A stretch of 47,676 nucleotides of DNA from Spirochaetales bacterium. GTDB lineage: Bacteria > Spirochaetota > Spirochaetia > Sphaerochaetales > Sphaerochaetaceae. Under the pieces are notes generated by a model that searched no databases, was not told the origin of the DNA, and worked only from the letters and a program-made list of their open reading frames with translations. A program made the translations under genes and the position numbers. Of the stretch, positions 1 to 45,625 are shown piece by piece (the stretch's first letter is position 1; each line of letters begins with the position of its first letter). The stretch spans positions 1 through 47,676 of the forward strand of contig JAAYFO010000051.1 in assembly GCA_012728215.1 (NCBI GenBank). Direction: 5' to 3'.

Positions 1-1214
1 ACATTCTCCACAGGTTCCAGCTTCTTTCCATTGGAGCCCTCCTTGAATATGATCTTTGGCCGCCCCACACAAAGCTCAAACCCCTCACGCCTCATCTGCT
101 CAATGATGATCGCCATCTGGAATTCGCCTCTGCCCTTCACTGTATAAGTGTCATCTTCATTCTTGACTATCTGGATTGATACATTGCGCAAGGATTCCTT
201 TTTCAGTCTCTCGCCAATCTTGGCAGAAGTGACGAACTGTCCTTCCCTTCCGGAAAGCGGTGAAATGTTCCTTGAAAAAAGCATCGACACTGTAGGTTCA
301 TCGACAGTGATTCTAGCAAGAGCCTTAGGATAGGACTTGTTGCAGATGGTATCTCCAATGGAAACTTCCTCTATCCCTGAAAGAACTATGATATCTCCAC
401 TTTCGACTTTATTGGCTTCTCCATACGAAGGTCCATTGTAGGTCTGCAATCTCGTCACTCGTAGAGGGACATGGTTCCCGTCTGCTTCAATGCAGACAAG
501 GCTGTCATTTGTGGTGACAGTTCCATTGATGACCTTTCCAATTGCCAGACGTCCAAGAAAATCCGAATAGCCCAGATCAGAAACAAGCATCTGAAACGGT
601 TCCTCATCGTCATATTCAGGTGCAGGAATATAGCTCACTATCTTATCCAGAAGGACATGAAGATTGTTCACATCCCGTCGATTCAGATCGTCAGTAACGA
701 TTCCCTCTCTTCCTATTGCATAGAAAACAGGAACCTCAAGCATTGACTCATCAGCCTTCAGCTCCAGAAGCAGATCATAGACTTCATTGAGGACTTCAGA
801 AGGCCTTGCATCCTGTCGGTCAATCTTGTTGATCACGACTATGACTGCCAGGTCCTTCTCCAATGCCTTTGAAAGAACAAATCTCGTCTGCGGCAATGGT
901 CCTTCGGCCGCATCTACCAGAAGCACCACCCCATCAACCATCGAAAGACCACGCTCCACTTCACCCCCGAAGTCCGAATGGCCTGGAGTATCAAGGATGT
1001 TGATCTTTCTGCCCTGCCAATGGATGGCGCAGTTCTTGGAAGTGATAGTTATTCCTCGCTCACGCTCAATCGTGCCGCTGTCCATGATTCTTGTCTGGTC
1101 ACCTTTGGTAACCAATCCGCTCTGCTTGATCATGGCATCCACCAAAGTGGTCTTGCCGTGGTCTACATGTGCAATTATTGCAATGTTTCTGATGTCATCA
1201 TTTCTTCTTTTCAT
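1..1214 (-). CDS. typA: Translational GTPase TypA/BipA (3' end cut by window edge)
   Basis: Ribosome-associated GTPase of the EF-G/LepA group, involved in ribosome assembly and stress adaptation. About 404 N-terminal codons are present. Near the start I read the P-loop AHVDHGKTTL, then DTPGHSDFGGEVERG (G3) and NKID (G4). Elongation-factor domains II and III/V follow, with the BipA-typical stretch GREGQFVTSAKIGERL. The frame stays open to position 1, so roughly the last third is missing. The start ATG (1212-1214) overlaps the TAA stop of the upstream sirtuin gene by one base (TAATG), so translation is probably coupled. It is the last visible gene of the folD-miaB-sirtuin-typA run. Family assignment is secure. 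Confidence 0.95.
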   Translation of the reverse strand, partial: MKRRNDDIRNIAIIAHVDHGKTTLVDAMIKQSGLVTKGDQTRIMDSGTIERERGITITSKNCAIHWQGRKINILDTPGHSDFGGEVERGLSMVDGVVLLVDAAEGPLPQTRFVLSKALEKDLAVIVVINKIDRQDARPSEVLNEVYDLLLELKADESMLEVPVFYAIGREGIVTDDLNRRDVNNLHVLLDKIVSYIPAPEYDDEEPFQMLVSDLGYSDFLGRLAIGKVINGTVTTNDSLVCIEADGNHVPLRVTRLQTYNGPSYGEANKVESGDIIVLSGIEEVSIGDTICNKSYPKALARITVDEPTVSMLFSRNISPLSGREGQFVTSAKIGERLKKESLRNVSIQIVKNEDDTYTVKGRGEFQMAIIIEQMRREGFELCVGRPKIIFKEGSNGKKLEPVEN

Positions 1215-31961: not shown

Positions 31962-33071
31962 CTATTTGATGTTTCCAAGGTAATTTACATTGACATTGGT
32001 GGTGACTGGAGCATTTTCAATATCACTTGAAACCTTGATGGTTCCGGCAAGAATCTTTGCAACGAGATCTTGGCAATCCTTCTTTGTGAAGGAATCTGAC
32101 CACTGTGTGCCTGCTCCTGTAGGAATTCCAACGAAGTTTGCATCGAGATCAGTGCTGGAAACCAGTCCGAGGTTAGCAACCTTTCCGACCAGAGTATCCC
32201 ACTTTCCATCTTCGATGATTGTCTTCAAAGTAGCCTTTGTGGAAGCTGCAAGACCCTTGATTGCTGATGTGACAGTCATGCCTGCACCATAGTTTGCATC
32301 AATGATAGGAGCCTGGTCCACGTCAACGCCGATGACCTTTCCATTGACCTTGGCTGCTGCTTCTGCAACTGATGTGAAGATTCCACCGCCACAGGCAAAT
32401 ACGCATTCCATGCCCCTGCCGAACCATGTGTCCATATAAGCTGTGATATCAGCATCACCATAGAACTGATTGCCATAGACATAGTTCATGTTGAGTTTCA
32501 TCCCTGCTTCCTTGGCGGCAAGATCGACACCCTGGACGAATCCGTATCCAAAGCGGACAACCGCTGGAACAGCCATTCCACCGAGATAACCAAGCTTTGT
32601 GTAGCCGAGCTTGACTGCTGCATAACCAGCAATGAATCCAGCAAACTCTTCCTGATATACCATTGAGTAGACGTTGCTCATGTCAGCACCAGTGAGATCA
32701 TACTCAGAAACATCAAGTGCCACGAACTTAACATCAGGATACTGAGGAGCAGCTTCCTTGATGGCGTCGGCAAATGCGAATCCTGGCATGACGATGATGT
32801 TGAAACCCACGTCGACAGCCTTTTCCATCATTGCAACACGCTCTGCTGTTGAGTCTCCAGCTGGCTTGTAATAGGCAAATCTGATTCCCTGAGCTTCACA
32901 ATACTGCTTGCAAGCTTCATAAGTAGTCTGGTTGAATGACTGGTCGGTGATGTCACCATAGTCAGTGACCATTGCGACTGCATAAGACTCTCCCTTGGCT
33001 TCCTGAGCACCCTGTGCAAAGGCGGAAAAAGCAACGGCAAGAATCAGAAGTACTGAAAAAATCTTTTTCAT
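31962..33071 (-). CDS. BMP/PnrA-family nucleoside-binding protein (system 1)
   Basis: Periplasmic substrate-binding protein of the Bmp/Med family, 369 aa, the receptor for the ABC importer. A signal peptide, MKKIFSVLLILAVAFSAFA, ends without the lipobox Cys found in many family members, so it should be soluble or held otherwise. Family blocks: VAMVTDYGDITDQSFNQ (about 36), IIVMPGFAFADAI, FVALDVSEYD, GYLGGMAVPAVVRFGYGFVQG and VFACGGGIF. AGGAGG lies before ATG 33069-33071. It has its own promoter at 33117-33145. It forms a unit with the ATPase and two permeases downstream. Confidence 0.9.
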   Translation of the reverse strand: MKKIFSVLLILAVAFSAFAQGAQEAKGESYAVAMVTDYGDITDQSFNQTTYEACKQYCEAQGIRFAYYKPAGDSTAERVAMMEKAVDVGFNIIVMPGFAFADAIKEAAPQYPDVKFVALDVSEYDLTGADMSNVYSMVYQEEFAGFIAGYAAVKLGYTKLGYLGGMAVPAVVRFGYGFVQGVDLAAKEAGMKLNMNYVYGNQFYGDADITAYMDTWFGRGMECVFACGGGIFTSVAEAAAKVNGKVIGVDVDQAPIIDANYGAGMTVTSAIKGLAASTKATLKTIIEDGKWDTLVGKVANLGLVSSTDLDANFVGIPTGAGTQWSDSFTKKDCQDLVAKILAGTIKVSSDIENAPVTTNVNVNYLGNIK

Positions 33072-33116
33072 TTGATATCCTCCTAAAGATAACACCTGCA
33101 AACCGCAGGCAAAATA

Positions 33117-33145
33117 ATGCTAACATTGTTTGTTGATGATTTCAA
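33117..33145 (-). promoter_or_regulatory. Promoter of transporter system 1
   Basis: TTGAAA (33140-33145), a 17-base spacer and TAGCAT (33117-33122) on the minus strand. The short hairpin CCTGC-GGTTT-GCAGG lies in the leader at about 33095-33109, before the AGGAGG site. Confidence 0.55.
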
Positions 33146-33177
33146 GCATAAAAACTTTTTATCGACCATTTGAAATC
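33138..33177. promoter_or_regulatory. Nested inverted repeat overlapping the system-1 promoter
   Basis: GATTTCAA (33138-33145) and TTGAAATC (33170-33177) are perfect inverted arms. Almost concentric inside them is ATAAAAA-C-TTTTTAT (33148-33162). The left arm covers the -35 box. It could be an operator, or a terminator for the preceding operon, although no T tract follows the outer stem. Confidence 0.5.
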
Positions 33178-33200
33178 AACTACACAATTCACGATCAAGG

Positions 33201-34109
33201 TCAGGATGCTCCACCGCTATATGGCTTTCCACTGGCCTGAGGTGCATAATCCTTCCCACTGAATACAATAAGAGCAATCAGTGTTATAGCATATGGAAGC
33301 ATATTGAACCATTCAGCTGGAATTACCTTCAATGCAGGGAAATTCGTAGCGATGACACTGAAGGCCTGAGCTGCTCCAAACAGGAAGGCTGCTCCGGTGA
33401 CACCAAGCGGAGTCCAACGTCCGAATGCCACTGCGGCTATGGCGATGAATCCTCTTCCGTTTATCGTATTGGAAGTATATTGGATTGTCTGCGTAAGGAC
33501 TATGCATCCTCCAGCAAGCCCTGAAAGGATTCCAGAAACACCTACTCCGATATATCTGATTCTACGAACATTTATTCCAACTGACTCGGCGGCGGCAGGA
33601 TGCTCTCCGCAGGCTCTTAGATGGAGTCCGAATGGAGTCTTGTACAGAACATACCAGGCGACAAGGACAACGACAAGCGCTATATAAGCAGTAGGATACA
33701 GCCCCAACTTGTCAACTACCATTCCAACCTTGAATTCCTTGGTTCTATCTGCATGAAACAGAATCTGCGAAGCAAAGATAGTCACACCATCCGCAAGCAG
33801 GTTGATTCCTGTACCGGATATGGTCTGATCAGCATTGAAATTGATTGAAGCAACTGCATGTATCAGCGAGAACAGTCCGGATACGAGCATTCCTACAAGC
33901 AAGGCAACGGCGATGCTGTAACGTCCGCAACCAGCCGCTTCCATAAGATAATGAGTGCTTGCCGCTGCGCAGGCACCGATACCCATCAGCCCTTCCAAGG
34001 CAATGTTCACGACTCCTGATCGCTCACAGATCATTCCTCCGATTGCAGTAATGAGTATCGGAGCCACAATCATCAGGATTGTCGGTATACTGCTGATTAT
34101 CATGTTCAT
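33201..34109 (-). CDS. BMP-type nucleoside ABC transporter permease (second permease, system 2)
   Basis: A 302-aa paralogue of the permease at 28245-29186, the YufQ type. It has GGMICERSGVVNIALEGLMG near residue 24, INFNADQTISGTGINLLADG and the coupling loop GLHLRACGEHPAAAESVGIN. It has about eight to ten membrane helices. The ATG overlaps the stop of the upstream permease (ATGA). It is the last gene of system 2; the next gene is the system-1 binding protein, 130 bases on, with its own promoter. Confidence 0.88.
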   Translation of the reverse strand: MNMIISSIPTILMIVAPILITAIGGMICERSGVVNIALEGLMGIGACAAASTHYLMEAAGCGRYSIAVALLVGMLVSGLFSLIHAVASINFNADQTISGTGINLLADGVTIFASQILFHADRTKEFKVGMVVDKLGLYPTAYIALVVVLVAWYVLYKTPFGLHLRACGEHPAAAESVGINVRRIRYIGVGVSGILSGLAGGCIVLTQTIQYTSNTINGRGFIAIAAVAFGRWTPLGVTGAAFLFGAAQAFSVIATNFPALKVIPAEWFNMLPYAITLIALIVFSGKDYAPQASGKPYSGGAS

Positions 34110-35215
34110 TTTGCAAGCACCTCCTTCCTTACCTTCTGCTTTTCCCTAAGTTGCTTCACAAGTTCAAGTCCACTTCTCAAAGCGATGAATACAACAATCA
34201 GGCCTTGTATGATGAATGTGATTTCCTTTGGAATATCCATGTTCTGCATCAATGACTGAGACTCCTTGAGAATTCCAAAAAGAATTCCAGCTATGAAAGT
34301 CCCAAGTGCTGTGTTGTTTCCAACCAAGGCAACGGCGATTCCCATGAATCCGTAGTTATCCTGAGCAGCAAGAATACGGCCACTGGTGAAAGCACCGCCA
34401 AGAAGCACGCAAGCACCAGCCAAACCTGAAAAAGCTCCCGATATGGCCATTGCAAGACTTATGTTCTTCACGACGTTTATCCCACTGCAGCGTGCGGCAT
34501 CCTTGTTAAGCCCCGTGGCACGGAACCCAAAGCCAAGCTTTGTCTTCTCCATGATGAACCAGTACAGCAGACAGGCTCCGATCATTATGATGAAGGAGAT
34601 ATTGAGATTGGAAGTCGGTATGATCATTTTTGACAGGAATGCCTGTGAGGGAAGTGCGGCGGTCTTGTATGTGGTGGCGCCTGGAAGCTGAAGGCTCACA
34701 AGGCGAGACCCGTAAAGAGCTACATAGTTAAGCATAATCGTTGCTACGACTTCACTTACCTGAAACTTAGCCTTGAGAATGCCGACTATGCCACCCCAGA
34801 TTGCACCGCCAATGACAGCAAGTACCAGACACAGCACCCAGAGTCCTGGAAAAGCCGGGACCAGAAGAGCCACCATCTGTGCAATTGTCATTCCGATGAC
34901 GTACTGACCTTCACCTCCGATATTGAACAGGCCTACCCTGCAGGCAAAAGCCATAGTCAGACCAGTGAGAACATATGGGATCGAGTATGCAAGAGTCTCT
35001 CCAACATACCGGAAATTCCATATTCCCTTGTTGTTCGCCTGTCCCACCATGGAAACAAAGATCGCCTTGAACATGTTGAAAGGGTTTTTTCCGACCACTG
35101 CGACAAGAATCGTACCGAAAAGGAATCCAAGGAACACCACAGCGACCGAAGTCGCTCCGTTGCTGTTTATGAACCAGTCAATGAAGCTCTTCCTACGCTC
35201 AAGCTTTCTTTTCAT
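34106..35215 (-). CDS. BMP-type nucleoside ABC transporter permease (first permease, system 2)
   Basis: A 369-aa paralogue of the permease at 29186-30319. It has a basic N-terminus (MKRKLERRK), a helix at about 20-42, then CRVGLFNIGGEGQYVIGM, LKAKFQVSEVVATIMLNY and GFGFRATGLNKDAARCSGI. GGAGG precedes the ATG at 35213-35215, which overlaps the ATPase gene end by 17 bases. It pairs with the next permease as the transport channel of system 2. Confidence 0.88.
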   Translation of the reverse strand: MKRKLERRKSFIDWFINSNGATSVAVVFLGFLFGTILVAVVGKNPFNMFKAIFVSMVGQANNKGIWNFRYVGETLAYSIPYVLTGLTMAFACRVGLFNIGGEGQYVIGMTIAQMVALLVPAFPGLWVLCLVLAVIGGAIWGGIVGILKAKFQVSEVVATIMLNYVALYGSRLVSLQLPGATTYKTAALPSQAFLSKMIIPTSNLNISFIIMIGACLLYWFIMEKTKLGFGFRATGLNKDAARCSGINVVKNISLAMAISGAFSGLAGACVLLGGAFTSGRILAAQDNYGFMGIAVALVGNNTALGTFIAGILFGILKESQSLMQNMDIPKEITFIIQGLIVVFIALRSGLELVKQLREKQKVRKEVLAK

Positions 35216-36806
35216 CTGCTTCCTCCTTCCTTGCCTTGACTCCAGCCATCATCAGTCCGATTTCATTCGCAGAGACTTCACCTGCCTTGAAGGTGCCGAC
35301 TATTGTCCCCTTGCTGATTGTTGCAATCCTGTCACAAAGATTCATGATTTCATCAAGTTCAAAGCTTATCAGAAGAATTGCCCTTCCCTTGTCTCTTTCC
35401 TCCACGATTCTCTTTCTGATATATTCGATTGCACCGACATCAAGTCCTCGTGTAGGCTGGGCGACAAGAAGCACTGCTGGTGAAAGACTGATTTCTCTTG
35501 CAACAATCACCTTCTGCTGGTTTCCTCCAGACAGTGAACCGGCAAGAGTTTCAGACCCCTGCCCGCTTCTGATATCGAACTGCTCGATGAGAGCATCGGA
35601 ATTGCTCTTCATATGAGAAAAGTTCAAAGTTCCCAGTTTCCCGGAATACTTGTTTCCATAGAAGTCCTTCAGAACGCAGTTTTCGGCAATGGTCATTCCT
35701 GAAACCAGACCGTATTTCTGTCGATCCTCAGGAATGTAGCCCAACCCATCTTCTATTCTTTCCCTGATGCTCATCTTGTTGATAAGCTTTCCATCAAGAA
35801 GTATCTCACCACTTTCAGGCGTGGTCAGTCCGCTGAGTGCCTGAAGAAGTTCCGACTGCCCATTGCCATCAATACCTGCAATTCCAAGAATCTCACCGGA
35901 CTGGACATAGAACGAGCAGTTCTTCACTTTTTCAGCGCCAAGACTGTCGTTCACGCAAAGATCATTGACCTCAAGCATCTTGCGGCCGAGATTCGCCTTC
36001 TGCTTCTCTATCTCGAAGCTGACAGGACGACCGACCATCATTGTTGCCAGGTCTTCTTCGCTTTCATCCTGCACATTGACGGTGCCGATATATTTTCCTC
36101 GCCTCAGGACACTGCAGCGGTCTGCAACCTTCTTGATTTCCTTAAGCTTATGAGTAATCAGGATTATCGTCTTTCCTTCCTTCTTCAGACGAAGGATTAT
36201 CTGCATGAGTTCGTCAATTTCCTGAGGAGTGAGAACAGCAGTAGGCTCATCAAAGATGATTATGTCACTATCGCTGTACAGTGTCTTGAGTATTTCCACC
36301 CGTTGCTGCATTCCGACAGTGATATCTTCAATCTTGGCCTTGGGATCAACGGAAAGTCCATAACGGTCCGAAAGACTCTTGACCTTTTTTTCCGCAGATC
36401 CTAGTGAAACAATGGAAAAATTCCCCTTCTTTGGATTGATCTTCTGATCATTGACTGTTCTGGCAAACAAGGATCTTCGCGGCTCCTTGCCCAGAACTAT
36501 GTTTTCCGTGACGGTATAGTTGTGTACCAGCTTGAAATGCTGATGCACCATGCCTATTCCCAGTTCGGTAGCGACATTGGGGTCCTTTATCTGAACTGCC
36601 TGTCCATGAATCTTGATGATGCCGCTGTCAGCTGAATACGCACCGAAGAGAACAGACATCAAAGTTGATTTTCCTGCTCCGTTTTCACCAAGCAAAGCGT
36701 GAATCTCGTTAGTCTTCACTCTCAAAGTGATATTGTCATTTGCAATTATCCCTGGGAAAGTCTTTGTGATTCCCAGCATCTCAATCGCATAATCATCGGT
36801 CACCAT
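35199..36806 (-). CDS. Nucleoside ABC transporter double ATP-binding protein (system 2)
   Basis: A 535-aa RbsA/YufO-type fused ATPase. Module 1 has LLGENGAGKSTLMSVLFG and IFDEPTAVLTPQE. Module 2 has GIDGNGQSELLQALSG, LSGGNQQKVIVARE and VAQPTRGLDVGA. Compared with the system-1 ATPase there is an extra stretch of roughly 20 residues after IVLGKEPRRS, before the module-1 signature region. ATG 36804-36806 with AGGGGG just upstream is preferred over a longer frame from 36851 that enters the terminator. The C-terminus is rich in Lys and Glu. Confidence 0.92.
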   Translation of the reverse strand: MVTDDYAIEMLGITKTFPGIIANDNITLRVKTNEIHALLGENGAGKSTLMSVLFGAYSADSGIIKIHGQAVQIKDPNVATELGIGMVHQHFKLVHNYTVTENIVLGKEPRRSLFARTVNDQKINPKKGNFSIVSLGSAEKKVKSLSDRYGLSVDPKAKIEDITVGMQQRVEILKTLYSDSDIIIFDEPTAVLTPQEIDELMQIILRLKKEGKTIILITHKLKEIKKVADRCSVLRRGKYIGTVNVQDESEEDLATMMVGRPVSFEIEKQKANLGRKMLEVNDLCVNDSLGAEKVKNCSFYVQSGEILGIAGIDGNGQSELLQALSGLTTPESGEILLDGKLINKMSIRERIEDGLGYIPEDRQKYGLVSGMTIAENCVLKDFYGNKYSGKLGTLNFSHMKSNSDALIEQFDIRSGQGSETLAGSLSGGNQQKVIVAREISLSPAVLLVAQPTRGLDVGAIEYIRKRIVEERDKGRAILLISFELDEIMNLCDRIATISKGTIVGTFKAGEVSANEIGLMMAGVKARKEEADEKKA

Positions 36807-36860
36807 ATCCCCCTTTTGACAGAATCTTTTTTCTCTTCTGTCATGGAACACAATAAAATA

Positions 36861-36889
36861 ACCCCCTGAAGACCATATCCTCAGAGGGT
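36861..36889 (-). terminator. Hairpin between BMP protein gene and ATPase gene (system 2)
   Basis: On the minus strand ACCCTCTGA pairs with TCAGGGGGT (one G-T), extendable by about three further pairs, followed by TATTTTATT. It occupies the same place as the hairpin at 31909-31934 in system 1. Confidence 0.8.
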
Positions 36890-36906
36890 AGTGAAATCAT
36901 GATCAA

Positions 36907-38013
36907 TCAGTCATCAAGAGCACTCAGTCCAGCAGGAACTGCACCTGCTGCAAGAGCTTCCTTGTAAGTCTTGTATACAACGATCTTTCCGGAGATAATG
37001 TCGGCCTTGGCCTTCTCAGCGGCAGCCTTGGCTGCTGGATTGAGATCAGAATTGGCAGAAGAATATCCAACACCACCATCAGCCATGACCATCTCGATGG
37101 CAGCTGCGGTTGCTTCTCTGAATGTTCCAGCCTCGATCTTTCCAAGTGCATCCTTGGTCGAGTTCTCGACAAGCTTCAGCATGGAAGTGAGAACTGATGA
37201 CTTTGAACCTTCGTAGATTCCACGAGTGTACTGGTCAGAGTCAACACCAATTGACCAAACGTTCTTCCCAGCCATTCTGTATTCCTTGGACTGAGCGATA
37301 GTTCCGTTTCCGGTTCCACCAGCTGCAGAGAAAATGCAGTATACACCGTTGTCGAACCAGTTCTTTGCCTGAGCCTTGGCCAATTCCGGCTTGCCCCAGT
37401 CGTTGGCATAGTAATCGACGATTGTGGCATCTGGGAATACTGAAAGGACACCCATCACATAACCGACTTCGAACTTTGTGATTGTAGCTCCAGGAACTCC
37501 ACCGATGAATCCGAACTTAGGATTCTTGATACCATCAGCCTTGGCCTGTTCGGCAGCAATGACACCGACAAGGTAAGATCCCTGTTCCTCACCATAGATG
37601 TAGTTGAGTACGTTAGGCTGGATTATCCAGTTAACGTCAACTATCATGAAATTCTGATCAGGATAAAGTGGTGCTACCTCACCAAGGGCATCTGCCCATG
37701 TGAAGCCGGTGACGATGATGAGATCGTATCCCTCATCAGCAGCATTCTTCAAGTTAGGAATATACATATCAGCAGATGCTGCAGTCACTACATCATAAAG
37801 AGTTCCTCTTGACGGAGTATTGTCGATTGACTCACCATAGAACTCAACGATTCCACGCCATGCAGCTGCATTGAATGAATCATCATCAATTCCAGTGGCA
37901 TCAGTCAGAAGACGGACAGTCGGCTTGCTAGAAGCGACAGCTTCCTTTCCACCCTGAGCGAAGGCGGAGAAGACAACAGAAATAATCAAAAGAAGTGCAA
38001 AAAGTTTTTTCAT
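36907..38013 (-). CDS. BMP/PnrA-family nucleoside-binding protein (system 2)
   Basis: A 368-aa periplasmic binding protein of the Bmp family. Signal peptide MKKLFALLLIISVVFSAFA is followed by QGGKEA; there is no lipobox Cys. Family blocks: VRLLTDATGIDDDSFN near residue 38, GYDLIIVTGFTWADAL, FMIVDVN, GFIGGVPGATITKFEVGY and IFSAAGGTGNG. GGAGG lies ahead of ATG 38011-38013. It is clearly divergent from the system-1 protein (different ligand-loop residues), so ligand preference may differ. It is separated from the V-ATPase operon only by a hairpin. Confidence 0.9.
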   Translation of the reverse strand: MKKLFALLLIISVVFSAFAQGGKEAVASSKPTVRLLTDATGIDDDSFNAAAWRGIVEFYGESIDNTPSRGTLYDVVTAASADMYIPNLKNAADEGYDLIIVTGFTWADALGEVAPLYPDQNFMIVDVNWIIQPNVLNYIYGEEQGSYLVGVIAAEQAKADGIKNPKFGFIGGVPGATITKFEVGYVMGVLSVFPDATIVDYYANDWGKPELAKAQAKNWFDNGVYCIFSAAGGTGNGTIAQSKEYRMAGKNVWSIGVDSDQYTRGIYEGSKSSVLTSMLKLVENSTKDALGKIEAGTFREATAAAIEMVMADGGVGYSSANSDLNPAAKAAAEKAKADIISGKIVVYKTYKEALAAGAVPAGLSALDD

Positions 38014-38031
38014 GAAAACCTCCAAAGAAAT

Positions 38032-38069: not shown

Positions 38070-38504
38070 TTATTTGTTCAAAAGCAACATCGAAAACACG
38101 AGAGTGAAGAGGGCAACTGTCTCTATGACACCAACAATGATGAAATAGTTCGCTGTTCCCTTTCCAGTCTCTGCAAGTGCATCACATGCAGAGGCGGCTG
38201 CCTTTCCCTGCATCCAAGCCGATAGTCCGATAGCAAGACCACCGAATACTCCGGTGAAAAGTCCAAGAAGCGGATCAATCGTCTCAAGCTTGTTTCCGAT
38301 GAAGTTCATCAGAAGAAATCCATAGATGGTCTGTGTGAGCGGAGCTCCACCGAAAGCCACCATGATGAACGGAGCAGGCTTGCCGTTTGCGTAGCACTTC
38401 TTCCATCCGCCGACAGCTGCCTGTCCAGCGGCACCTGTTCCAAGACCTGACCCCAGAGCCGAAAGGCAAAGGGCACAAGCCATTCCAATATAAACCATGT
38501 TCAT
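38070..38504 (-). CDS. ntpK: V-type ATP synthase subunit K (c-ring proteolipid)
   Basis: Rotor ring subunit, 144 aa, four membrane helices (two fused hairpins). Helix 2 reads APLTQTIYGF, with Thr57 and Gln58. Helix 3 has Gln99 in WMQGKAAAS. Helix 4 has the ion-carrying Glu128 in GVIETVALF. These positions line up with Thr64, Gln65, Gln110 and Glu139 of Enterococcus hirae NtpK, which bind Na+. AAGGAG six bases upstream marks the ATG. It is the last gene of the V-ATPase operon and is followed by a hairpin. Confidence 0.94.
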   Translation of the reverse strand: MNMVYIGMACALCLSALGSGLGTGAAGQAAVGGWKKCYANGKPAPFIMVAFGGAPLTQTIYGFLLMNFIGNKLETIDPLLGLFTGVFGGLAIGLSAWMQGKAAASACDALAETGKGTANYFIIVGVIETVALFTLVFSMLLLNK

Positions 38505-38519
38505 TCCACACTCCTTGAA

Positions 38520-40367
38520 TCAGTTTGATTCAGTTGATTTGCAAAAAGGTTCGTACGCTATCCCTGTCCAAGTCATTCCTAGCTGTCCAGAGAACTCCAG
38601 TAGATTCAATCTGACTCCATGAACGACAACGCTCAGAAGTCCCATAACGATATTAAGGGAATGCCCGATCACGAGGATCAGCACACCGGCAGGAAGAGCA
38701 AGTCCGTTGAGCATCGACGATGCCATCGAATTGAAGCTCTTCGCTATCTCCACCGACGCCATTCCAACGGCGAACAGACGGATGTAGCTCATGATATTTC
38801 CAAAAGCACTGATAGTGTTGAGGAAAGTTGTGAAGAGGCCACCAGCGCCAGAGGCAAGTCCTATTGCGAACTTGACACCGGGACCCTGGCATCCAAAAAC
38901 CAGAACAAGAAGGAAACCTAATCCTACTCCGGCAAAGACGGCCATCGCATTGACAGCCTTGTTCAGAACCAGAAGAAGAACGAGGAAATACAGCGAGTCA
39001 ATCATGATGAGCCAGCCCACATCGGCCATGGCGGAAAGGTCCTTGGCACCAATCTTTCTGGACACGTTCATCACGCACGCCAGGCTGAGCTGAATCGTTC
39101 CGACAATGAAGCAGAACTGCATCACAGTATCCTGAACAGTCTTGTCAGGGACACCGAAGATTGATGGGAAATTGGCAAATTCCTTGATGACGAACATCTG
39201 AAGGAACTTGGAATCAGCCAGAATGACATCACTGCCAAACCATGTTCCGGTCACAGCCCCCCATACGGTTGTGGCTATTCCAAGCACATAGACAAGCAGA
39301 ACCAGATTGTCAGTCTTCCTCTTTTTCCAATGAAGGAACGCCGCAACTGCGATAAATAGCAGACCATAGGCGGCATCTCCAATGATCATTGCAAAGAAAA
39401 GTGCAAAGAACATCAAAAACCAAAGGCTGATGTCATATTCGTAGTATCCCGGGATTGTCCCAAGCATATCGAAAAGAGGCTTCATCAGACCAGTCACCTT
39501 GTTGTAGACAAGCTTGGTCGGAGGGTTGTCTTCTTCCTTCACATCTTCAAGCAAATAGGCAAAACGGTTATCGGAAACATATTTTCTGAAGGCTTCAAGT
39601 CCCGTTTGAGGAACAAACCCCACTATCCAGCAAAGGTTGTCTCCATCCACAGTGGAATTCTGCGCCATTTCGAACTTGATGCTCTCAGACACCATTGAAA
39701 TCTGTCTGTCATATTCATCGCAGAGATTGACTGATTGTTCAAGCTTCTGCACAAGCAATGCCAATTCAGCTTCATCTTCCTCGATGTTCTTCCTCATCAA
39801 GGAAGGGCAGTTATCATCAATGACGAATTCGGCTGCTCCGAATGAATCGGGGAGCTTGTTTCCTACAGATGCGATTGCACATTGTCCACTGACCGGTGAA
39901 AGACGGATATATCCGAGATTTTCAGGAATCCTTGCAATATCCTTCTTCGAAATTGTATAGAAAAAAAGCTTCAAGCCACAGCTGAAAAGATAACGATAGT
40001 CTTCACTGCTGTAATCGCCCCATGCACTGAGCTCTGAAAGCTTGATTCTTTTTCGTCCAAGACTTTCTCCCAGAAGCTTGATCCTGTCCAAGGCATCAGT
40101 CAACACCAGATCAGTGGATTTGAATTCCTCAGGAGAAAGACTTATCTGCCTTGCAGAATGCTTTTTGTCAACATGCTCATCCAAAGCCATTCTGACTCTT
40201 TTAAGAGATGTCAGACGGGAACGCAGCGAATCCAATCCAGGACTCGATACTGCAGAAGCCTTTTCCGACTTGATATGCATCAGTCCCAGATCACGAAGTG
40301 CAGATATCATCTGATTCTTGTCTGTCCGTTTCGAGACTACATACGCTTTATACATTTTCTCTATCAT
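38520..40367 (-). CDS. ntpI: V-type ATP synthase subunit I (a-subunit homologue)
   Basis: Stator membrane subunit forming the ion half-channel, 615 aa. The first about 300 residues are cytoplasmic and partly coiled-coil. After PLFDMLGTIPGYYEYD there are about seven to eight helices, beginning LMFFALFFAMIIGDAAYGLLF and ending GHSLNIVMGLLSVVVHGVRL, then NLLEF. The helix with SYIRLFAVGMASVEIAKSFN carries the family Arg in the ion path. The start overlaps the subunit D stop by four bases, and subunit K follows after 15 bases. Confidence 0.93.
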   Translation of the reverse strand: MIEKMYKAYVVSKRTDKNQMISALRDLGLMHIKSEKASAVSSPGLDSLRSRLTSLKRVRMALDEHVDKKHSARQISLSPEEFKSTDLVLTDALDRIKLLGESLGRKRIKLSELSAWGDYSSEDYRYLFSCGLKLFFYTISKKDIARIPENLGYIRLSPVSGQCAIASVGNKLPDSFGAAEFVIDDNCPSLMRKNIEEDEAELALLVQKLEQSVNLCDEYDRQISMVSESIKFEMAQNSTVDGDNLCWIVGFVPQTGLEAFRKYVSDNRFAYLLEDVKEEDNPPTKLVYNKVTGLMKPLFDMLGTIPGYYEYDISLWFLMFFALFFAMIIGDAAYGLLFIAVAAFLHWKKRKTDNLVLLVYVLGIATTVWGAVTGTWFGSDVILADSKFLQMFVIKEFANFPSIFGVPDKTVQDTVMQFCFIVGTIQLSLACVMNVSRKIGAKDLSAMADVGWLIMIDSLYFLVLLLVLNKAVNAMAVFAGVGLGFLLVLVFGCQGPGVKFAIGLASGAGGLFTTFLNTISAFGNIMSYIRLFAVGMASVEIAKSFNSMASSMLNGLALPAGVLILVIGHSLNIVMGLLSVVVHGVRLNLLEFSGQLGMTWTGIAYEPFCKSTESN

Positions 40368-40981
40368 AGCGGCTGGACCTTCAAAAGCTTGTTCTTTGCA
40401 ATCTTACCTCTGACAACAGCAGAAGTCTGCTGATCCCCAAGGTAAATTCCAATCTTGCGAATATTCTCCTTAGCTTCAGGAATCTTGACCTTCTCAAAGA
40501 GGTTGACTCTCTGACTTGTCGTAAGCAGTTCCTTCTCAAGCAGATAGACTTGCCTGCTGAGAGTGGAGTTCCTTGCATCAAGCTCGGCAATTTCCTTCAA
40601 TGCAGTGATTCCAATATCAACCCACAGAGGATAAGCGCCGAAATCGTATGCAATGGGCTTGAACTTGATTTCTTCAAATACAGGAATCGTGACACCAGCG
40701 ATATTGCCCACCCCTTTCTTGACAGAATCAATCTGTACCAGATCTTCCATTCTGTGTCTCTCAGGAAAAGTCACATTCTCATTGAACACAGCAACCCACC
40801 GTTCAAGCGACTTGACAAGTTCTTCCTTCTGTTTCTTCACTTTATCAGCCTCAGCCTCAATCTGGCGTATGACCATCTGAAGCTGCTGCTTCTTAAGCAA
40901 CAGAGTAGGAAGATACCTCTCGTACTGCTTGAGGGCATCCTTCTGCTTCTTCTGCTCATTCTTGGTAAGCTTTACCGCCAT
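40364..40981 (-). CDS. ntpD: V-type ATP synthase subunit D (central stalk)
   Basis: Central-stalk subunit inside the A3B3 head, 205 aa. It is mainly two long helices: an N-terminal one with LTKNEQKKQKDALKQYERYL and LLLKKQQLQ, and a C-terminal one with LDARNSTLSRQVYLLEKELL. The Lys-rich start is typical of the family. The ATG shares one base with the subunit B stop, and the end overlaps subunit I. Subunit F, its usual partner, is not encoded in the operon. Confidence 0.93.
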   Translation of the reverse strand: MAVKLTKNEQKKQKDALKQYERYLPTLLLKKQQLQMVIRQIEAEADKVKKQKEELVKSLERWVAVFNENVTFPERHRMEDLVQIDSVKKGVGNIAGVTIPVFEEIKFKPIAYDFGAYPLWVDIGITALKEIAELDARNSTLSRQVYLLEKELLTTSQRVNLFEKVKIPEAKENIRKIGIYLGDQQTSAVVRGKIAKNKLLKVQPL

Positions 40982-42279
40982 TACCGGACCTCCGGCTTCT
41001 TGTTCGGCCAGCGCTCCATTATCAGAGAGGATTTCAACCCTGTCTCATTAGGCTCGAAACAATCTGCGAGAATTTTCCATCCAAGATCCAATGCATCCTC
41101 GAGTGAAATATTCACCGTGAGAGCCATCAGCTTCTCTTCAAAGAGTCTTCCATACTTCAAAAGCTTCTTGTCCCATTCAGTCATCATGAATCCCATTGAT
41201 TTCTTCTCAAAGGAGTCCTTGTATGCTGCATAAAGCTTGATCATGCCGTCCATAAGCGCACGATGGTCATCTCGGGTGTCCTTGTTGACATTCTGCTTCA
41301 ATCTTGAAAGTGAGCCGAAAGGTTCGATTCTTCCATTCTTCAGATAATACTGACCTTCGGTGATATAGCCTGTGTTGTCAGGAACCGGGTGAGTGACATC
41401 ATCACCTGGCATTGTCGTGACTCCCAGGATGGTCAGAGAACCTGCACCCTCGAAGTCAACAGCCTTCTCATACCTTGAAGCGAGCTGGCTGTACAGATCT
41501 CCTGGGTAGCCTCGGTTGGAAGGCACCTGATCCATGGTGATGGCCATTTCCTTCATCGAGTCGGCAAAGTTGGTCATATCGGTCAGAAGCACAAGCACTT
41601 TCTTCCCATCTATTGCAAAGCGTTCCGCCACGGCAAGCGCCATGTCAGGAACCAGAGTGCATTCTACAGTCGGATCACTTGCAGTATGGATGAACATTAT
41701 CGTTCTTCCCATTGCACCGCTGTTCTCCAAGGTATCCCTGAAGAACAGATAGTCATCATACTTGAGTCCCATTCCGCCGAGGACAATCAGATCGACCTCA
41801 GCCTGCATGGCGATCCTGGCAAGAAGCTGATTGTAGGGTTCTCCGGAAACAGAGAAGATCGGAAGTTTTTGTGACTCTACGAGAGTATTGAATACGTCGA
41901 TCATCGGAATTCCAGTCCGGATCATGTTCCTTGGAATGATTCTTTTTGCCGGATTGACCGATGGGCCTCCGATCTCAATCATGTTCTCATCAAGTTCAGG
42001 TCCACCGTCCATCGGCCTTCCGCTTCCGGTGAATACGCGTCCAAGAAGGTTTTCCGAATAGGAAACCTTCATTGGAACTCCAAGAAATCTCACTTGATCA
42101 GTGGTTGAGATTCCCTTTGCTCCGGCAAACACCTGCAATGACACAAGGTTGCCGTCAAGCTTGATCACGTTGGCATAGCTGCTTCCGACCATGGCAAGGT
42201 CCTGGTAGCGGACACCTTCTGCCCTTACCGTTATAACATCACCAATGATTGATTCAATCTTTGTATATACTTTCTGCAT
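40981..42279 (-). CDS. ntpB: V-type ATP synthase subunit B (non-catalytic head subunit)
   Basis: Non-catalytic subunit of the A3B3 head, 432 aa. It contains [18 protein letters not shown] (about 58-75), [24 protein letters not shown] (in part), and [12 protein letters not shown]-like [18 protein letters not shown]. No true P-loop is present, as expected (VSGEPYNQL replaces it). [15 protein letters not shown] and [20 protein letters not shown] are hallmarks of the family. It shares one base with the A and D genes on either side, pointing to coupled translation and balanced amounts. Confidence 0.96.
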
Positions 42280-44018
42280 TAGCGGGCCTCCTGTCTGACC
42301 TTGCTGACCAGAAGCTGTTCAATGGCATCTTCGGTCTCGGCAAATCTCGGGTCGTCTGTCACCACTCCGTTCCAGTCAAGGAACTTCTGCCTCATCTCAT
42401 TGAAGAATTTTCTCGCACCCTTCTTGTCCTCCAGCACAAAGTCACTTGTAAGAACCTTGTACATGAGGTCGAATACATGTCTCTGCCTGTCTGGAAGAAC
42501 TGCAGAGTCGACAGGGTCGAATGAGTTCTGCTGAAGGAACGCAGAGTCAAGAAGCTCGCTCTTCTGATAGATGACATAATCGTCCACAGAAGTGCCTTCT
42601 TCACCTACAACCTTCATCATCTGATTGATCTCATTTCCTCTGAAGAGAATAGCTCTGGCCTTCTCAACTCTTTCAGAATCGATTATTCCCGGATACTTTG
42701 ACCATGAATCAAGCGGATGAATTGCAGGATACTTTCTGGCATCACTTCTTTCTCTTGACAACCCATGGAAAGCACCAACGACCTTCAGTGTGGCCTGAGT
42801 CACCGGTTCCTCGAAGTTACCACCAGCAGGGCTGACAGTACCGCCTATAGTGACCGAAGCGACTGAGCCATCATTGAGTCTGACTTTTCCAGCTCTTTCA
42901 TAGAATGCGGCAATGACGCTCTCAAGATAAGCAGGGAAAGCCTCTTCTCCAGGAATCTCCTCAAGTCTTCCGCTCATCTCTCTCATAGCCTGAGCCCAAC
43001 GGCTGGTGGAGTCGGCCAGAAGAAGGACGTTCAGTCCCATCTGCCTGTAGTACTCGCCCATGGTGACTGCCGTGTATACCGAAGATTCACGTGCCGCTAC
43101 CGGCATCGATGAAGTGTTGCAGATGATGATGGTTCTTTCCATCAATGTCTTTCCAGTCTTCGGGTCGATGAGTTCAGGGAACTCCTTCAAGGTCTCGACA
43201 ACTTCTCCAGCTCTTTCTCCGCATGCCGCTATGATGACTATGTCAACATCGGCATTTCTTGAGGTCATGTGCTGGAGAACAGTCTTTCCTGCTCCAAAAG
43301 GCCCCGGAATGCAATATGTCCCACCCTTTGCAATAGGGAGGAATGTATCAATGATCCTGACCTTGGTGATCAGCGTCTCGTCAGGTCTCAGCCTCTCCTT
43401 GTAGAGCTTGATCGGCTTCTTGACTGGCCAGGAGAAGACCATTGTGCACTTCTCCTCCCTTCCCTTTGGATCACTGAGAACAGCGATTTCGGCTCTGACA
43501 TTGTAAACACCCTTCGTCACGATTTTCTTCACAGTCCATGGAACTGCATCGAATCCGAACGGGACCATTATCCTGTGAGTGAAGACACCTTCCTCTACAG
43601 TACCCAATGTGTCGCCTGGACGGACTTTATCGCCGACTGCTACAACTGGAGTGAACTCCCAGTCCCTGTTTGGAATCGGATCAAGATAAATACCACGCTG
43701 GAGGAAGAATCCGCATTTCTCAGCAAGATCTGGAAGCGGATTCTGAAGTCCATCATAAATCTGAGTGAGAAGTCCCGGCCCGAGTTCAACGCTGAGCATT
43801 TCTCCGGCAAACTCGACCCTATCTCCTACCGCGACACCGTTGGTCATCTCAAAGACCTGCATGTCTGCAAGATTGCCTCTGATCTTGATTACTTCACCTT
43901 TAAGATGAGTATCGCCGACTACGATATAGCCGACCTCGTTCTTTGCAATCGATCCCTGGAACTCCACTGTGACCATGTTTCCATTGACACCGACCACATG
44001 ACCTTCATTATTCTTCAT
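42279..44018 (-). CDS. ntpA: V-type ATP synthase subunit A (catalytic)
   Basis: Catalytic ATPase subunit, 579 aa, with the family-specific extra domain after about residue 110. The P-loop is GPFGAGKT (239-246). The catalytic Glu/Arg region is AACGERAGE (264-272). [20 protein letters not shown] follows. The length matches bacterial and archaeal A subunits. It lies three bases after the DUF2764 gene and shares one base with subunit B. Direction of catalysis (ATP synthesis or hydrolysis) cannot be read from sequence. Confidence 0.97.
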
Positions 44019-44021
44019 AGT

Positions 44022-44582
44022 CTACTCCAACTTATTCTTCGTATCAAAAATTATGCTCTGCATATTGCAAAACAGCCTTTTGTATTCGGCCTTTCCTTCC
44101 AAAACAGAGAATTCATCCTTACGCAAAAGCAGCAGCAACTTGACCGCATACCCGAACAAGGCAGTCTGGTCAAACTGAGCAAGCCCAATCATATTGTCCG
44201 CATTCTGAAATAGAAACCTGAGCATGAAAAGCTCCGCTTCAAGCGGTTCCCTCGTACCTGTCTCTCCGTATGACATGGCAATGGCATGGGAAACACAATT
44301 GCTGATGGCGAAATCCTCATCCATCACAGATTCCACTGAAACAGAATGCTTTCTGCACCTTTGTGAGGTCAGGGTGTTGATGAACTTTCCGTAGAATTCC
44401 TTCCACTTTCTTGTGAATGTGCAGGCATCGTTTCCAGCAAGCGTCAGTGAACAGAGGTCATCGTAATCCGAATCAGTGATGTTTCCCTTGCAATGCTCAA
44501 GAAATGACTCCATTGTAAACGGAGCTCTTTCATCAAACGAAAGCGAAGGAAGGCTTGACATCATGTAGTAATAAAGAGACAA
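44022..44582 (-). CDS. DUF2764-type protein of the V-ATPase operon
   Basis: A 186-aa protein opening MSLYYYMMSSLPSLSFDERA, the N-terminal signature I associate with DUF2764, a family found inside V-ATPase operons of spirochaetes and Bacteroidetes. The rest looks helical, with no nucleotide site or membrane segment. The likely start is a TTG at 44580-44582, with a GGGGG site five bases upstream; no ATG gives the full signature. It lies between subunits E and A, the place where other bacteria encode subunit C (and F). No C gene is seen here, so a C-like stalk role is plausible but unproven. Confidence 0.75.
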   Translation of the reverse strand: MSLYYYMMSSLPSLSFDERAPFTMESFLEHCKGNITDSDYDDLCSLTLAGNDACTFTRKWKEFYGKFINTLTSQRCRKHSVSVESVMDEDFAISNCVSHAIAMSYGETGTREPLEAELFMLRFLFQNADNMIGLAQFDQTALFGYAVKLLLLLRKDEFSVLEGKAEYKRLFCNMQSIIFDTKNKLE

Positions 44583-44591
44583 GACAGCCCC

Positions 44592-45149
44592 CTATACGTT
44601 CAGATTGCCGATGAACGGCTTCAGCACGGCGGCGATCTCCTCATCTGAGAAATCATAGAAACCAGAACCATCCTTGCATGAAAGACGAGTTCCATCAAAA
44701 CCTGGAAGCGAAGTAAGCTTAAGGCCCTTTTCTATCTGCTTGGCAAGTGCATTCTTGAGTTCGGCATCAATCTGCTTGGAGACCAGCTCGTATTTTGCTG
44801 GGTCATCACCTTGAAGAGCTGCAATAACGATGGAGCCCATCGTCTTGGAATCAAGAGTAGAGCCGACTTCCTGGGCAAGAAGACTGCAAAGAATATCTGA
44901 TATTTCCTTCTTCAGTGAAATAACCACATCACGGCAAGCCTGTTTCGTTGCGGCAATCGAGCTTTCCCTCTCCAGCTCAAGTTCCCTGTGAGCGGCATCA
45001 ATAAGCTTCGTTGCTTCCATCCTGGCATCTTCTACAATTCTGACTGACTGTTGCTCAGCTGCACTGATGATCGCGGCCTTCTGCTTCTCGGCCTCCTCTA
45101 TTCCATCATGCTTGATGGAGGAAACCAAATCCTGAATCTGCAATTCCAT
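44592..45149 (-). CDS. ntpE: V-type ATP synthase subunit E (peripheral stalk)
   Basis: Peripheral-stalk subunit, 185 aa. The N-terminal half is a long charged helix rich in Ala, Glu and Lys (EEAEKQKAAIISAAEQQSVR, then ARMEATKLIDAAHRELELER), as in E/H stalk proteins. The C-terminal half is mixed alpha/beta and would contact the head. AAGGTGG upstream marks the ATG at 45147-45149. It is the first gene of the operon, with a strong promoter 20-50 bases upstream. The usual partner G/H is not encoded alongside. Confidence 0.88.
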   Translation of the reverse strand: MELQIQDLVSSIKHDGIEEAEKQKAAIISAAEQQSVRIVEDARMEATKLIDAAHRELELERESSIAATKQACRDVVISLKKEISDILCSLLAQEVGSTLDSKTMGSIVIAALQGDDPAKYELVSKQIDAELKNALAKQIEKGLKLTSLPGFDGTRLSCKDGSGFYDFSDEEIAAVLKPFIGNLNV

Positions 45150-45169
45150 CGTTTACCACCTTGAAATAT

Positions 45170-45198
45170 AATATATTGGGCTTATCTTAAAATTTCAA
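45170..45198 (-). promoter_or_regulatory. Sigma70-type promoter of the V-ATPase operon
   Basis: TTGAAA (45193-45198), a 17-base spacer and TATATT (45170-45175) on the minus strand, about 20 bases before the subunit E ATG. Confidence 0.7.
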
Positions 45199-45285
45199 GT
45201 TGAAAATGGCAAATATCACTTGTTTGTATTTCTGTTGAAAAATTCACAAAGAAAACAATGAAAAATTCCCATTTCCCAGCCATCC

Positions 45286-45315
45286 TTGATAACTTCATTG
45301 AGATTGAGATACAAT
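45286..45315 (+). promoter_or_regulatory. Promoter of the GIY-YIG-like gene, implying a leaderless message
   Basis: TTGATA (45286-45291), an 18-base spacer and TACAAT (45310-45315). The ATG at 45322-45324 begins seven bases after the -10 box, where transcription would start. No purine-rich ribosome site precedes it. Confidence 0.5.
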
Positions 45316-45321
45316 AAGCAC

Positions 45322-45597
45322 ATGACACAATACATAGGAATCATTGAAATTCGCAATCTGCTCTCAGACAGAAGGCTCTACATCAGTTCGGATGACACCT
45401 TTTCCGACTGTGCCAAGATCCGCTTTCAACTGGATCTAGGCACATATCCGCTGAAATCTCTTCAGGATGATTACAACGAGACAGGTCTGGAGCTTTTTAT
45501 CATCCACAAGGTTGAAACTCTTGGAGCACCAGCGGAAAAGCAGCTTGCCATCGCAAGATGGAACTCATCATGCCCTCAGGGAAGCCTCTATTGCTGA
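45322..45597 (+). CDS. Small degenerate GIY-YIG-like protein
   Basis: A 91-aa protein. The pattern G6-I-I-E-I-R-N, then L19-Y-I-S-S, R34-FQLDLGTY, then LQDDYNETGLELFIIHKVE matches the layout of short GIY-YIG-domain proteins (GIY / YIG / Arg / LQ-DW-x-YG). The Tyr of GIY is Ile8 and the Gly of YIG is Ser22, so nuclease activity is doubtful. The ATG at 45322 gives the domain with no extra N-terminus. In-frame TTG codons upstream lack ribosome sites. It is the only plus-strand gene in the right third, divergent from the V-ATPase operon and convergent with the MFS gene. Function unknown. Confidence 0.65.
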   Translation: MTQYIGIIEIRNLLSDRRLYISSDDTFSDCAKIRFQLDLGTYPLKSLQDDYNETGLELFIIHKVETLGAPAEKQLAIARWNSSCPQGSLYC

Positions 45598-45625
45598 CGT
45601 CCTGACAGACTGAACCGGCGGCATT

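What the first reader, a model, noticed from the sequence alone, without database searches (positions are those of the whole stretch)
38070..38504. c-ring subunit keeps the Na+-site residues, suggesting a sodium-coupled V-ATPase
Thr57, Gln58, Gln99 and Glu128 of subunit K line up with Thr64, Gln65, Gln110 and Glu139 of E. hirae NtpK, whose Na+ binding is established. Proton-type rings usually lack the two Gln residues. The alignment was made by eye.
Basis: partly seen in the sequence, partly recalled or inferred. Interest (0 to 1): 0.55.

Follow-up and report, generated by a model that had tools for sequence, protein, structure and literature searches.

The report
Predicted sodium-driven V-ATPase rotor subunit
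This spirochaete carries a rotary ATPase whose rotor protein keeps every side chain of a known sodium-binding pocket, beside a second rotary ATPase in the same genome that looks proton-driven; the reading is sound and useful, but the pocket is of an already recognised kind.

Summary
The gene at 38504-38070 (minus strand) encodes a 144-aa, four-helix V-ATPase proteolipid (subunit K). Thr57, Gln58, Gln99 and Glu128 align with Thr64, Gln65, Gln110 and Glu139 of E. hirae NtpK by pairwise search, MAFFT and a profile search (E 2.7e-28). Tyr61, Gln99 and Glu128 are invariant in 122 of 122 duplicated K sequences examined, Gln58 is kept in 121. A confident AlphaFold2 model has the NtpK fold, but proton-type proteolipids match equally well, so fold does not decide the ion. 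The strongest new evidence is internal: a second V/A-ATPase operon in the same genome has a one-hairpin K with Ile and Leu at the two Gln positions, a contrast repeated in 17 of 17 genomes of the family for which I held both sequences. The genome also has an Rnf operon and part of a sodium-pump decarboxylase beta subunit. Best reading: a Na+-coupled V-ATPase made of E, DUF2764, A, B, D, I and K, beside a H+-coupled one. Coupling is inferred, not measured. One correction: proton-type T. thermophilus K has Gln at the Gln110 position; the Gln65 position is the discriminating one.

The parts
38070..38504 (-). V-ATPase subunit K, duplicated (4-TM) proteolipid, 144 aa
   Evidence: NCBIfam NF005174 191.8 bits, cut-off 127; AF2 pLDDT 97.1, four helices 3-39, 48-71, 78-113, 117-142
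38334..38336 (-). codon of Thr57 (= NtpK Thr64)
   Evidence: T in 79 and S in 10 of 89 K-clade sequences
38331..38333 (-). codon of Gln58 (= NtpK Gln65), the discriminating ligand
   Evidence: Q in 88 of 89 (one N)
38322..38324 (-). codon of Tyr61 (= NtpK Tyr68, which stabilises the Glu)
38208..38210 (-). codon of Gln99 (= NtpK Gln110)
   Evidence: 89 of 89
38121..38123 (-). codon of Glu128 (= NtpK Glu139), ion-binding carboxylate
   Evidence: 89 of 89
38520..40367 (-). V-ATPase subunit I (stator a). Arg530 and Arg586 align with NtpI Arg573 and Arg629 (positions counted by hand on the printed alignment)
   Evidence: best PDB match 8wci_P, sodium ATPase subunit I, E 2.1e-19
40364..40981 (-). 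V-ATPase subunit D
   Evidence: PF01813 E 1.5e-40
40981..42279 (-). V-ATPase subunit B
   Evidence: PF00006 E 5.2e-52; B rather than A by size, lack of the PF16886 insert and gene order
42279..44018 (-). V-ATPase subunit A (catalytic)
   Evidence: PF00006 E 6.5e-66, PF16886
44022..44582 (-). DUF2764 protein of the operon, possible reduced C/d-like subunit
   Evidence: PF10962 E 9e-8; AF2 pLDDT 90.7, all helical; weak match to T. thermophilus Vo chain 8ywt_M, Z 4.4
44592..45149 (-). V-ATPase subunit E (peripheral stalk)
   Evidence: NF002424 E 2.4e-30, 105.6 bits, under its cut-off of 241; no Pfam match

Best explanation
Subunit K is the rotor proteolipid of a V-type ATPase that binds one Na+ per four-helix subunit. 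The ion sits between Gln99 (helix 3), Glu128 (helix 4), Thr57 and Gln58 (helix 2) and a helix-2 backbone carbonyl near Ala54, with Tyr61 holding Glu128. Hairpin 1 has no carboxylate of its own (Leu56 aligns with the T. thermophilus Glu), so the ring carries one site per two hairpins, as in E. hirae. Turning the ring past subunit I (Arg530, Arg586) moves Na+ across the membrane, driven by ATP hydrolysis, or makes ATP from a Na+ gradient built by Rnf and/or a carboxybiotin decarboxylase. A second V/A-ATPase in the same genome, with an aliphatic site, does the same with H+. Shown here: identity of the site residues, their conservation, the fold of the monomer, the operon, the second ATPase, and the Rnf and OadB-like genes. 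Inferred: Na+ binding, coupling, direction, division of labour.
For: Site residues align by three methods. In 89 K-clade sequences Q58 is kept in 88 and Y61, Q99 and E128 in 89; in 33 of 33 other duplicated K of the phylum Q65, Y68, Q110 and E139 are kept. In 80 loci from titled contigs: Q58 80, Y61 80, Q99 80, E128 79, T or S57 80 (helix 2 was the search pattern, so its counts are biased). Foldseek's best match is NtpK 2bl2 (E 1.2e-5); Z 18.3, rmsd 2.0 over 140 residues. K2 of the same genome has I, E, G, L, F at Q110, Glu, +1, +2, +5, and 17 of 17 genomes for which I held both sequences show TQYQE in the duplicated K and IEG(L/V)F in the single one. rnfCDGEAB operon. Sodium-pump decarboxylase beta, C-terminal part. 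Stator Arg pair aligned. Leu56 over the T. thermophilus Glu.
Against: No ion measurement. The fold matches H+-type eukaryotic proteolipids as well as NtpK (Z 18.3-19.1, tied). The decarboxylase gene is cut by a contig end. No pyrophosphatase (PF03030) and no PF03553 Na+/H+ antiporter was found in the genome. Rnf can move Na+ or H+ (PMC4511686, passages). The closest PDB match of both I subunits is NtpI, so subunit I does not discriminate. One of 80 loci has Lys at the Glu128 place.
Confidence: 0.77

Rival explanations
1. The ring can bind either ion and the enzyme is coupled to H+ (or to both) in the cell; the Na+ ligands are present but do not set the physiological ion.
For: Physiological use of Na+ depends on its excess over H+: an F. 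nucleatum study says its ring is in fact H+-selective and uses Na+ only when Na+ is in large excess, and describes the E. hirae enzyme as very weakly H+ selective (PMC3692424, passages). An N-type ring predicted Na+ was measured H+ (PMC5376962, passages). T. thermophilus, a proton enzyme, keeps one of the two Gln.
Against: The failed prediction and T. thermophilus both lack the polar residue at the Gln65 position (Met; Leu); this K has Gln there, as do 121 of 122 aligned sequences. The same genome already has a separate H+-type ring.
Confidence: 0.18
2. The motif is an inherited relic: the ancestor pumped Na+, and the side chains persist for packing reasons without ion selection.
For: The residues are near-universal in the duplicated K examined across the phylum, so their presence alone says little about this species' way of life.
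Against: The Gln positions are not kept in the one-hairpin K-like sequences (0 of 43 have the Gln110 equivalent). Three site positions are among the only five invariant columns of 122 sequences, while median column conservation in the K clade is 0.64.
Confidence: 0.05

Closest known systems
Enterococcus hirae NtpK (V-type Na+-ATPase subunit K; PDB 2bl2)
   Same: Duplicated 4-helix proteolipid, one carboxylate on helix 4, all five site side chains, fold
   Different: 29% identity over aligned columns (39 of 133); Leu56 for Gly63 and Ala54 for Leu61; the operon here has no C, F or G gene, subunits that bacterial V-ATPases typically have (PMC12018189, passages)
Spirochaete-type V-ATPase subunit K (NCBIfam NF005174) in an E, DUF2764, A, B, D, I, K operon; the Chlamydia/Spirochaete/Bacteroidetes group of PMC2359735
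   Same: K scores 191.8 bits against a cut-off of 127; K relatives in 156 of 296 phylum genomes, DUF2764 relatives in 96 of 128 class genomes
   Different: Nothing specific found; an ordinary member from a Sphaerochaetaceae-like genome (contig titles). That this operon layout is shared with Chlamydia is recalled, not tested
Thermus thermophilus V/A-ATPase subunit K (6qum, 8yy1)
   Same: Same superfamily; Gln at the Gln110 position
   Different: One hairpin, Leu at the Gln65 position, proton-coupled (PMC4511686 passage)
Second V/A-ATPase of this genome (contig C10, L003)
   Same: Rotary V/A-ATPase: C, I, K2, F, E, A, B and D all pass Pfam cut-offs
   Different: One-hairpin K2 (113 aa) with Ile at the Gln110 position and Gly, Leu, Phe at +1, +2, +5 of the Glu; holds the genome's only PF01990 (F) and PF01992 (C) matches

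Membership tests
V-type ATPase subunit K, duplicated proteolipid | Sequence family membership above curated cut-off | tested here: met
   NF005174 191.8 bits vs 127; PF00137 46.7 vs 24
V-type ATPase subunit K, duplicated proteolipid | Four-helix fold with one carboxylate, on helix 4 | tested here: met
   AF2 pLDDT 97.1; Glu128 in helix 117-142; Foldseek E 1.2e-5 to 2bl2
Na+-binding (NtpK-type) rotor site | Side-chain ligands Thr64, Gln65, Gln110, Glu139 and the supporting Tyr68 | tested here: met
   T57, Q58, Q99, E128, Y61
Na+-binding (NtpK-type) rotor site | Backbone carbonyl ligand at Leu61 | tested here: inconclusive
   The position aligns with Ala54; any residue has a carbonyl, but geometry was not measured
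Na+-binding (NtpK-type) rotor site | Na+ binding, Na+-dependent ATPase activity, Na+ protection from DCCD | not testable with these tools
   Needs purified protein
Complete bacterial V-ATPase operon of the E. hirae kind | Own genes for subunits F, C(d) and G beside A, B, D, E, I, K | tested here: not met
   45149-38070 holds E, DUF2764, A, B, D, I, K; the gap 45150-45625 has no ORF on the minus strand over 48 aa; neighbours are Atg22/MFS and Bmp genes; the genome's only PF01990 and PF01992 matches lie in the other operon. G was not searched genome-wide
H+-type V/A rotor site | Aliphatic residue at the Gln65 position | tested here: not met
   Gln58 in this K; Leu in K2 of the same genome

The most novel reading that the evidence does not exclude
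In this spirochaete family each cell runs two V/A-type rotary ATPases split by ion. One is a fuller, single-hairpin, H+-coupled enzyme. The other is a stripped-down Na+-coupled enzyme in which a DUF2764 protein replaces the C/d socket subunit and F is absent or borrowed from the other complex, since the genome holds one recognisable F gene and one recognisable C gene, both in the other operon. The pair would let a fermentative cell exchange ATP, Na+ and H+ gradients without a respiratory chain.
Probability: 0.4. Interest if true: 0.55.

Novelty: new member of a known kind. Interest (0 to 1): 0.33.

Why it matters
It turns an eyeballed motif into a testable contrast inside one genome: two V/A-ATPases, one with every Na+ ligand and one with none of the side-chain ligands but the carboxylate. 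PMC2359735 lists Borrelia and Treponema genomes with V-ATPase and no F-ATPase, and relatives of this K occur in Treponema contigs. Whether their energy cycle runs on Na+ bears on how these organisms conserve energy.

Tried and rejected
Fold as evidence for the ion: rejected, because NtpK and proton-type mammalian, plant and yeast proteolipids tie (Z 18.3-19.1).

Subunit I as a discriminator: rejected, because NtpI is the best PDB match of both I subunits.

Aligning only helices 3-4 of K with one-hairpin K: MAFFT shifted K's helix 3 by three columns, so Gln99 was read from the full-length alignment and the profile instead. The one-hairpin rows themselves align without gaps to NtpK there.

A wider sodium cycle: PF03030 and PF03553 gave no match in the genome. 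These are results against a broad Na+ economy. Other antiporter families were not searched.

DUF2764: Foldseek gave no match under E 1. VIA-align listed the T. thermophilus Vo chain 8ywt_M at rank 8 (Z 4.4, rmsd 6.2, 152 residues over 1..171), a level that may mean nothing for helical proteins. A profile search gave 3 matches up to E 1, best 3d0w (YflH protein, E 6.2e-4), none a V-ATPase chain. I do not claim that it is subunit C.

Literature: (open-access library only). I saw no measurement of ion specificity for a spirochaete V-ATPase in those listings or in the passages I read; subscription papers are not held, so this is no claim that none exists. The supplement with the c-subunit alignment of PMC2359735 and its coloured Fig. 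5 could not be seen, so I cannot say whether Treponema or Borrelia were marked Na+ there.

Rows dropped before counts: of 175 loci held, 165 were classed by BLAST score (89 K clade, 33 other duplicated K, 43 one-hairpin K-like, the last by 55 bits or more to K2; not otherwise checked to be V- rather than F-type). L001 and L002 (copies of L003 and the window), L034 and L035 (other families) and L004, L006, L018, L023, L026, L031 (too weak to class) were left out. The K-clade and other rows come from 90 of the 156 matched genomes (30 automatic loci plus 60 by place), 20 places (one proved one-hairpin) and automatic loci. The 17 paired genomes are those of the family for which I held both sequences, out of 61 searched.

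Full report
What is there. On the minus strand, 45149 to 38070 holds a compact V-ATPase operon: E, a DUF2764 protein, A, B, D, I, K. K (38504-38070) is 144 aa, 15 bases downstream of I, and is followed by Bmp/PnrA-type substrate-binding and ABC transporter genes. It passes the NCBIfam subunit K model NF005174 (191.8 bits, cut-off 127).

The observation. Three alignments place Thr57, Gln58, Gln99 and Glu128 on NtpK Thr64, Gln65, Gln110 and Glu139. A cryo-EM paper on the E. hirae enzyme names the pocket as L61, T64, Q65, Y68, Q110 and E139 (PMC10382590, passages). Leu61 contributes a backbone carbonyl (PMC2359735, passages); its place is Ala54 here, which neither helps nor hurts. Identity to NtpK is 39 of 133 aligned positions, and the five site residues are all among the identical ones.

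Conservation. In 89 K-clade sequences (window plus 88) the counts are: Gln58 88 (one Asn, L135), Tyr61 89, Gln99 89, Glu128 89, Thr57 79 with Ser in the other 10. In 33 further duplicated K of the phylum, Gln65, Tyr68, Gln110 and Glu139 are kept in 33 of 33, with Thr in 29 and Ser in 4 at position 64. Only five columns are invariant across all 122, and three of them are site residues. Among 80 loci from titled contigs, one has Lys at the Glu128 place, which I did not follow up.

Structure. AlphaFold2 with the 77-row alignment gives pLDDT 97.1 and four long helices. NtpK is Foldseek's first match. VIA-align Z values for NtpK (18.3) and for proton-type mammalian, plant and yeast proteolipids (up to 19.1) are tied. 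The NtpK site lies within one four-helix subunit (PMC2359735), so the monomer fold is the relevant one, but it does not choose the ion, and I could not measure distances.

The internal contrast. The genome (1.76 Mb in 212 contigs, 97% complete) has two PF00137 matches: this K, and a one-hairpin K2 on contig C10 within a fuller V/A-ATPase operon, where C, I, K2, F, E, A, B and D all pass Pfam cut-offs. No third ring gene was found, so no F-type ring was seen. At the five diagnostic places K2 reads Ile (Gln110), Glu, Gly (+1), Leu (+2) and Phe (+5). All 43 one-hairpin K-like sequences classed lack the Gln (Ile 32, Val 7, Thr 4) and have Leu, Ile or Val at +2 (30, 12, 1). In 17 of 17 genomes of the family for which I held both sequences, the duplicated K reads T-Q-Y-Q-E and the single K I-E-G-(L/V)-F. 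By the published rule (polar at the Gln65 place in Na+ enzymes, aliphatic in H+ enzymes; PMC2359735, passages) these are a Na+-type and a H+-type ring in one cell.

Reduced subunit set. The gap between E and the next gene upstream has no minus-strand ORF longer than 48 aa. The genome's only matches to the F family (PF01990) and the C family (PF01992) lie in the other operon. A subunit too divergent for these models would be missed, and G was not searched genome-wide.

Sodium economy. An rnfCDGEAB operon lies on contig C169; C, D, E, A and B pass their rnf subfamily cut-offs and G is under its own (73.4 bits against 102). The C-terminal 142 residues of a sodium-translocating decarboxylase beta subunit run off the end of contig C2 (166.2 bits, under the whole-protein cut-off of 190.6, as a fragment may be). 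Rnf moves H+ or Na+ depending on species (PMC4511686, passages). Against a broad sodium economy, no membrane pyrophosphatase (PF03030) and no PF03553 antiporter was found.

How it most likely works. One Na+ per four-helix K, because hairpin 1 has Leu56 where the one-hairpin T. thermophilus K has its Glu. The ring turns past Arg530 and Arg586 of subunit I, which align with NtpI Arg573 and Arg629 (positions counted by hand). E. hirae's enzyme has 10 sites per 3 ATP, can make ATP from a Na+ gradient in vitro, and is thought to pump Na+ out in vivo (PMC12018189, passages). I expect the same bidirectional chemistry here; the direction in the cell is open. Ring size is unknown.

The claim that proton rings usually lack the two Gln is right for the plant sequence displayed and for K2, but T. 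thermophilus K has Gln at the Gln110 place. The Gln65 place carries the discrimination. Sequence prediction of ion type is fallible: the B. pseudomallei N-type ring was predicted Na+ and measured H+ (PMC5376962, passages). That ring has Glu61, Thr62, Met63 and Tyr66, so it lacks the polar residue that this K has.

Known or new. Reading the ion from c/K ligands, and a divergent Chlamydia/Spirochaete/Bacteroidetes V-ATPase group, are in PMC2359735 (passages and sections 7 and 8). Relatives of this K occur in contigs titled Treponema, Bullifex and Sphaerochaeta. This is a new member of a known kind. The paired Na+-type and H+-type V/A-ATPases, and the reduced subunit set with DUF2764, are the parts worth a specialist's time. 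The family name Sphaerochaetaceae is inferred from the titles of the closest contigs, not from a tree.

Noticed in passing
44022-44582 (-): DUF2764 protein inside the V-ATPase operon: AF2 pLDDT 90.7, all helical. The only V-ATPase chain among the 50 weak structural matches shown is T. thermophilus Vo chain 8ywt_M (Z 4.4, 152 residues). It may be a reduced C/d-like socket subunit; the operon has no C, F or G gene, and the genome's only F and C matches are in the other operon.
   Followed up: partly
L003 (contig C10) 436-9374: A second V/A-ATPase operon in the same genome: an unclassed stalk-like gene, C, I, K2, F, E, A, B, D, then a universal stress protein gene, with a one-hairpin H+-type K2.
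   Followed up: yes
L003 9381-13433: Upstream of the second V/A-ATPase operon lie a PapD-like chaperone gene (PF00345 E 1.5e-7) and a 1096-aa gene without Pfam match that resembles an usher by eye.
   Followed up: partly
31962-38025 (-): Two Bmp/PnrA-like substrate-binding proteins flank a double-domain ABC ATPase and two BPD_transp_2 permeases directly downstream of K, a likely nucleoside importer.
   Followed up: partly
L219, L222-L226, L229-L238, L244, L251, L253: Close relatives of this K (57-73% identity) occur in contigs titled Clostridia and other Firmicutes, Neomarinimicrobiota, Omnitrophota, Planctomycetota or Scalindua, and Kiritimatiellaceae: gene transfer or mis-binning.
   Followed up: no
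L135 98-523 (-): A divergent K relative (about 40% identity) with Ser and Asn at the Thr57 and Gln58 places, the only K-clade sequence of 89 lacking Gln58.
   Followed up: no
G281 and G300: Two genomes of the same family show one PF00137 ring gene each, of the one-hairpin type (L093, L094). G281 is a 99% complete single contig with no match to the duplicated K, a natural comparison for Na+ dependence. For G300 (86% complete) only the PF00137 search was run.
   Followed up: partly
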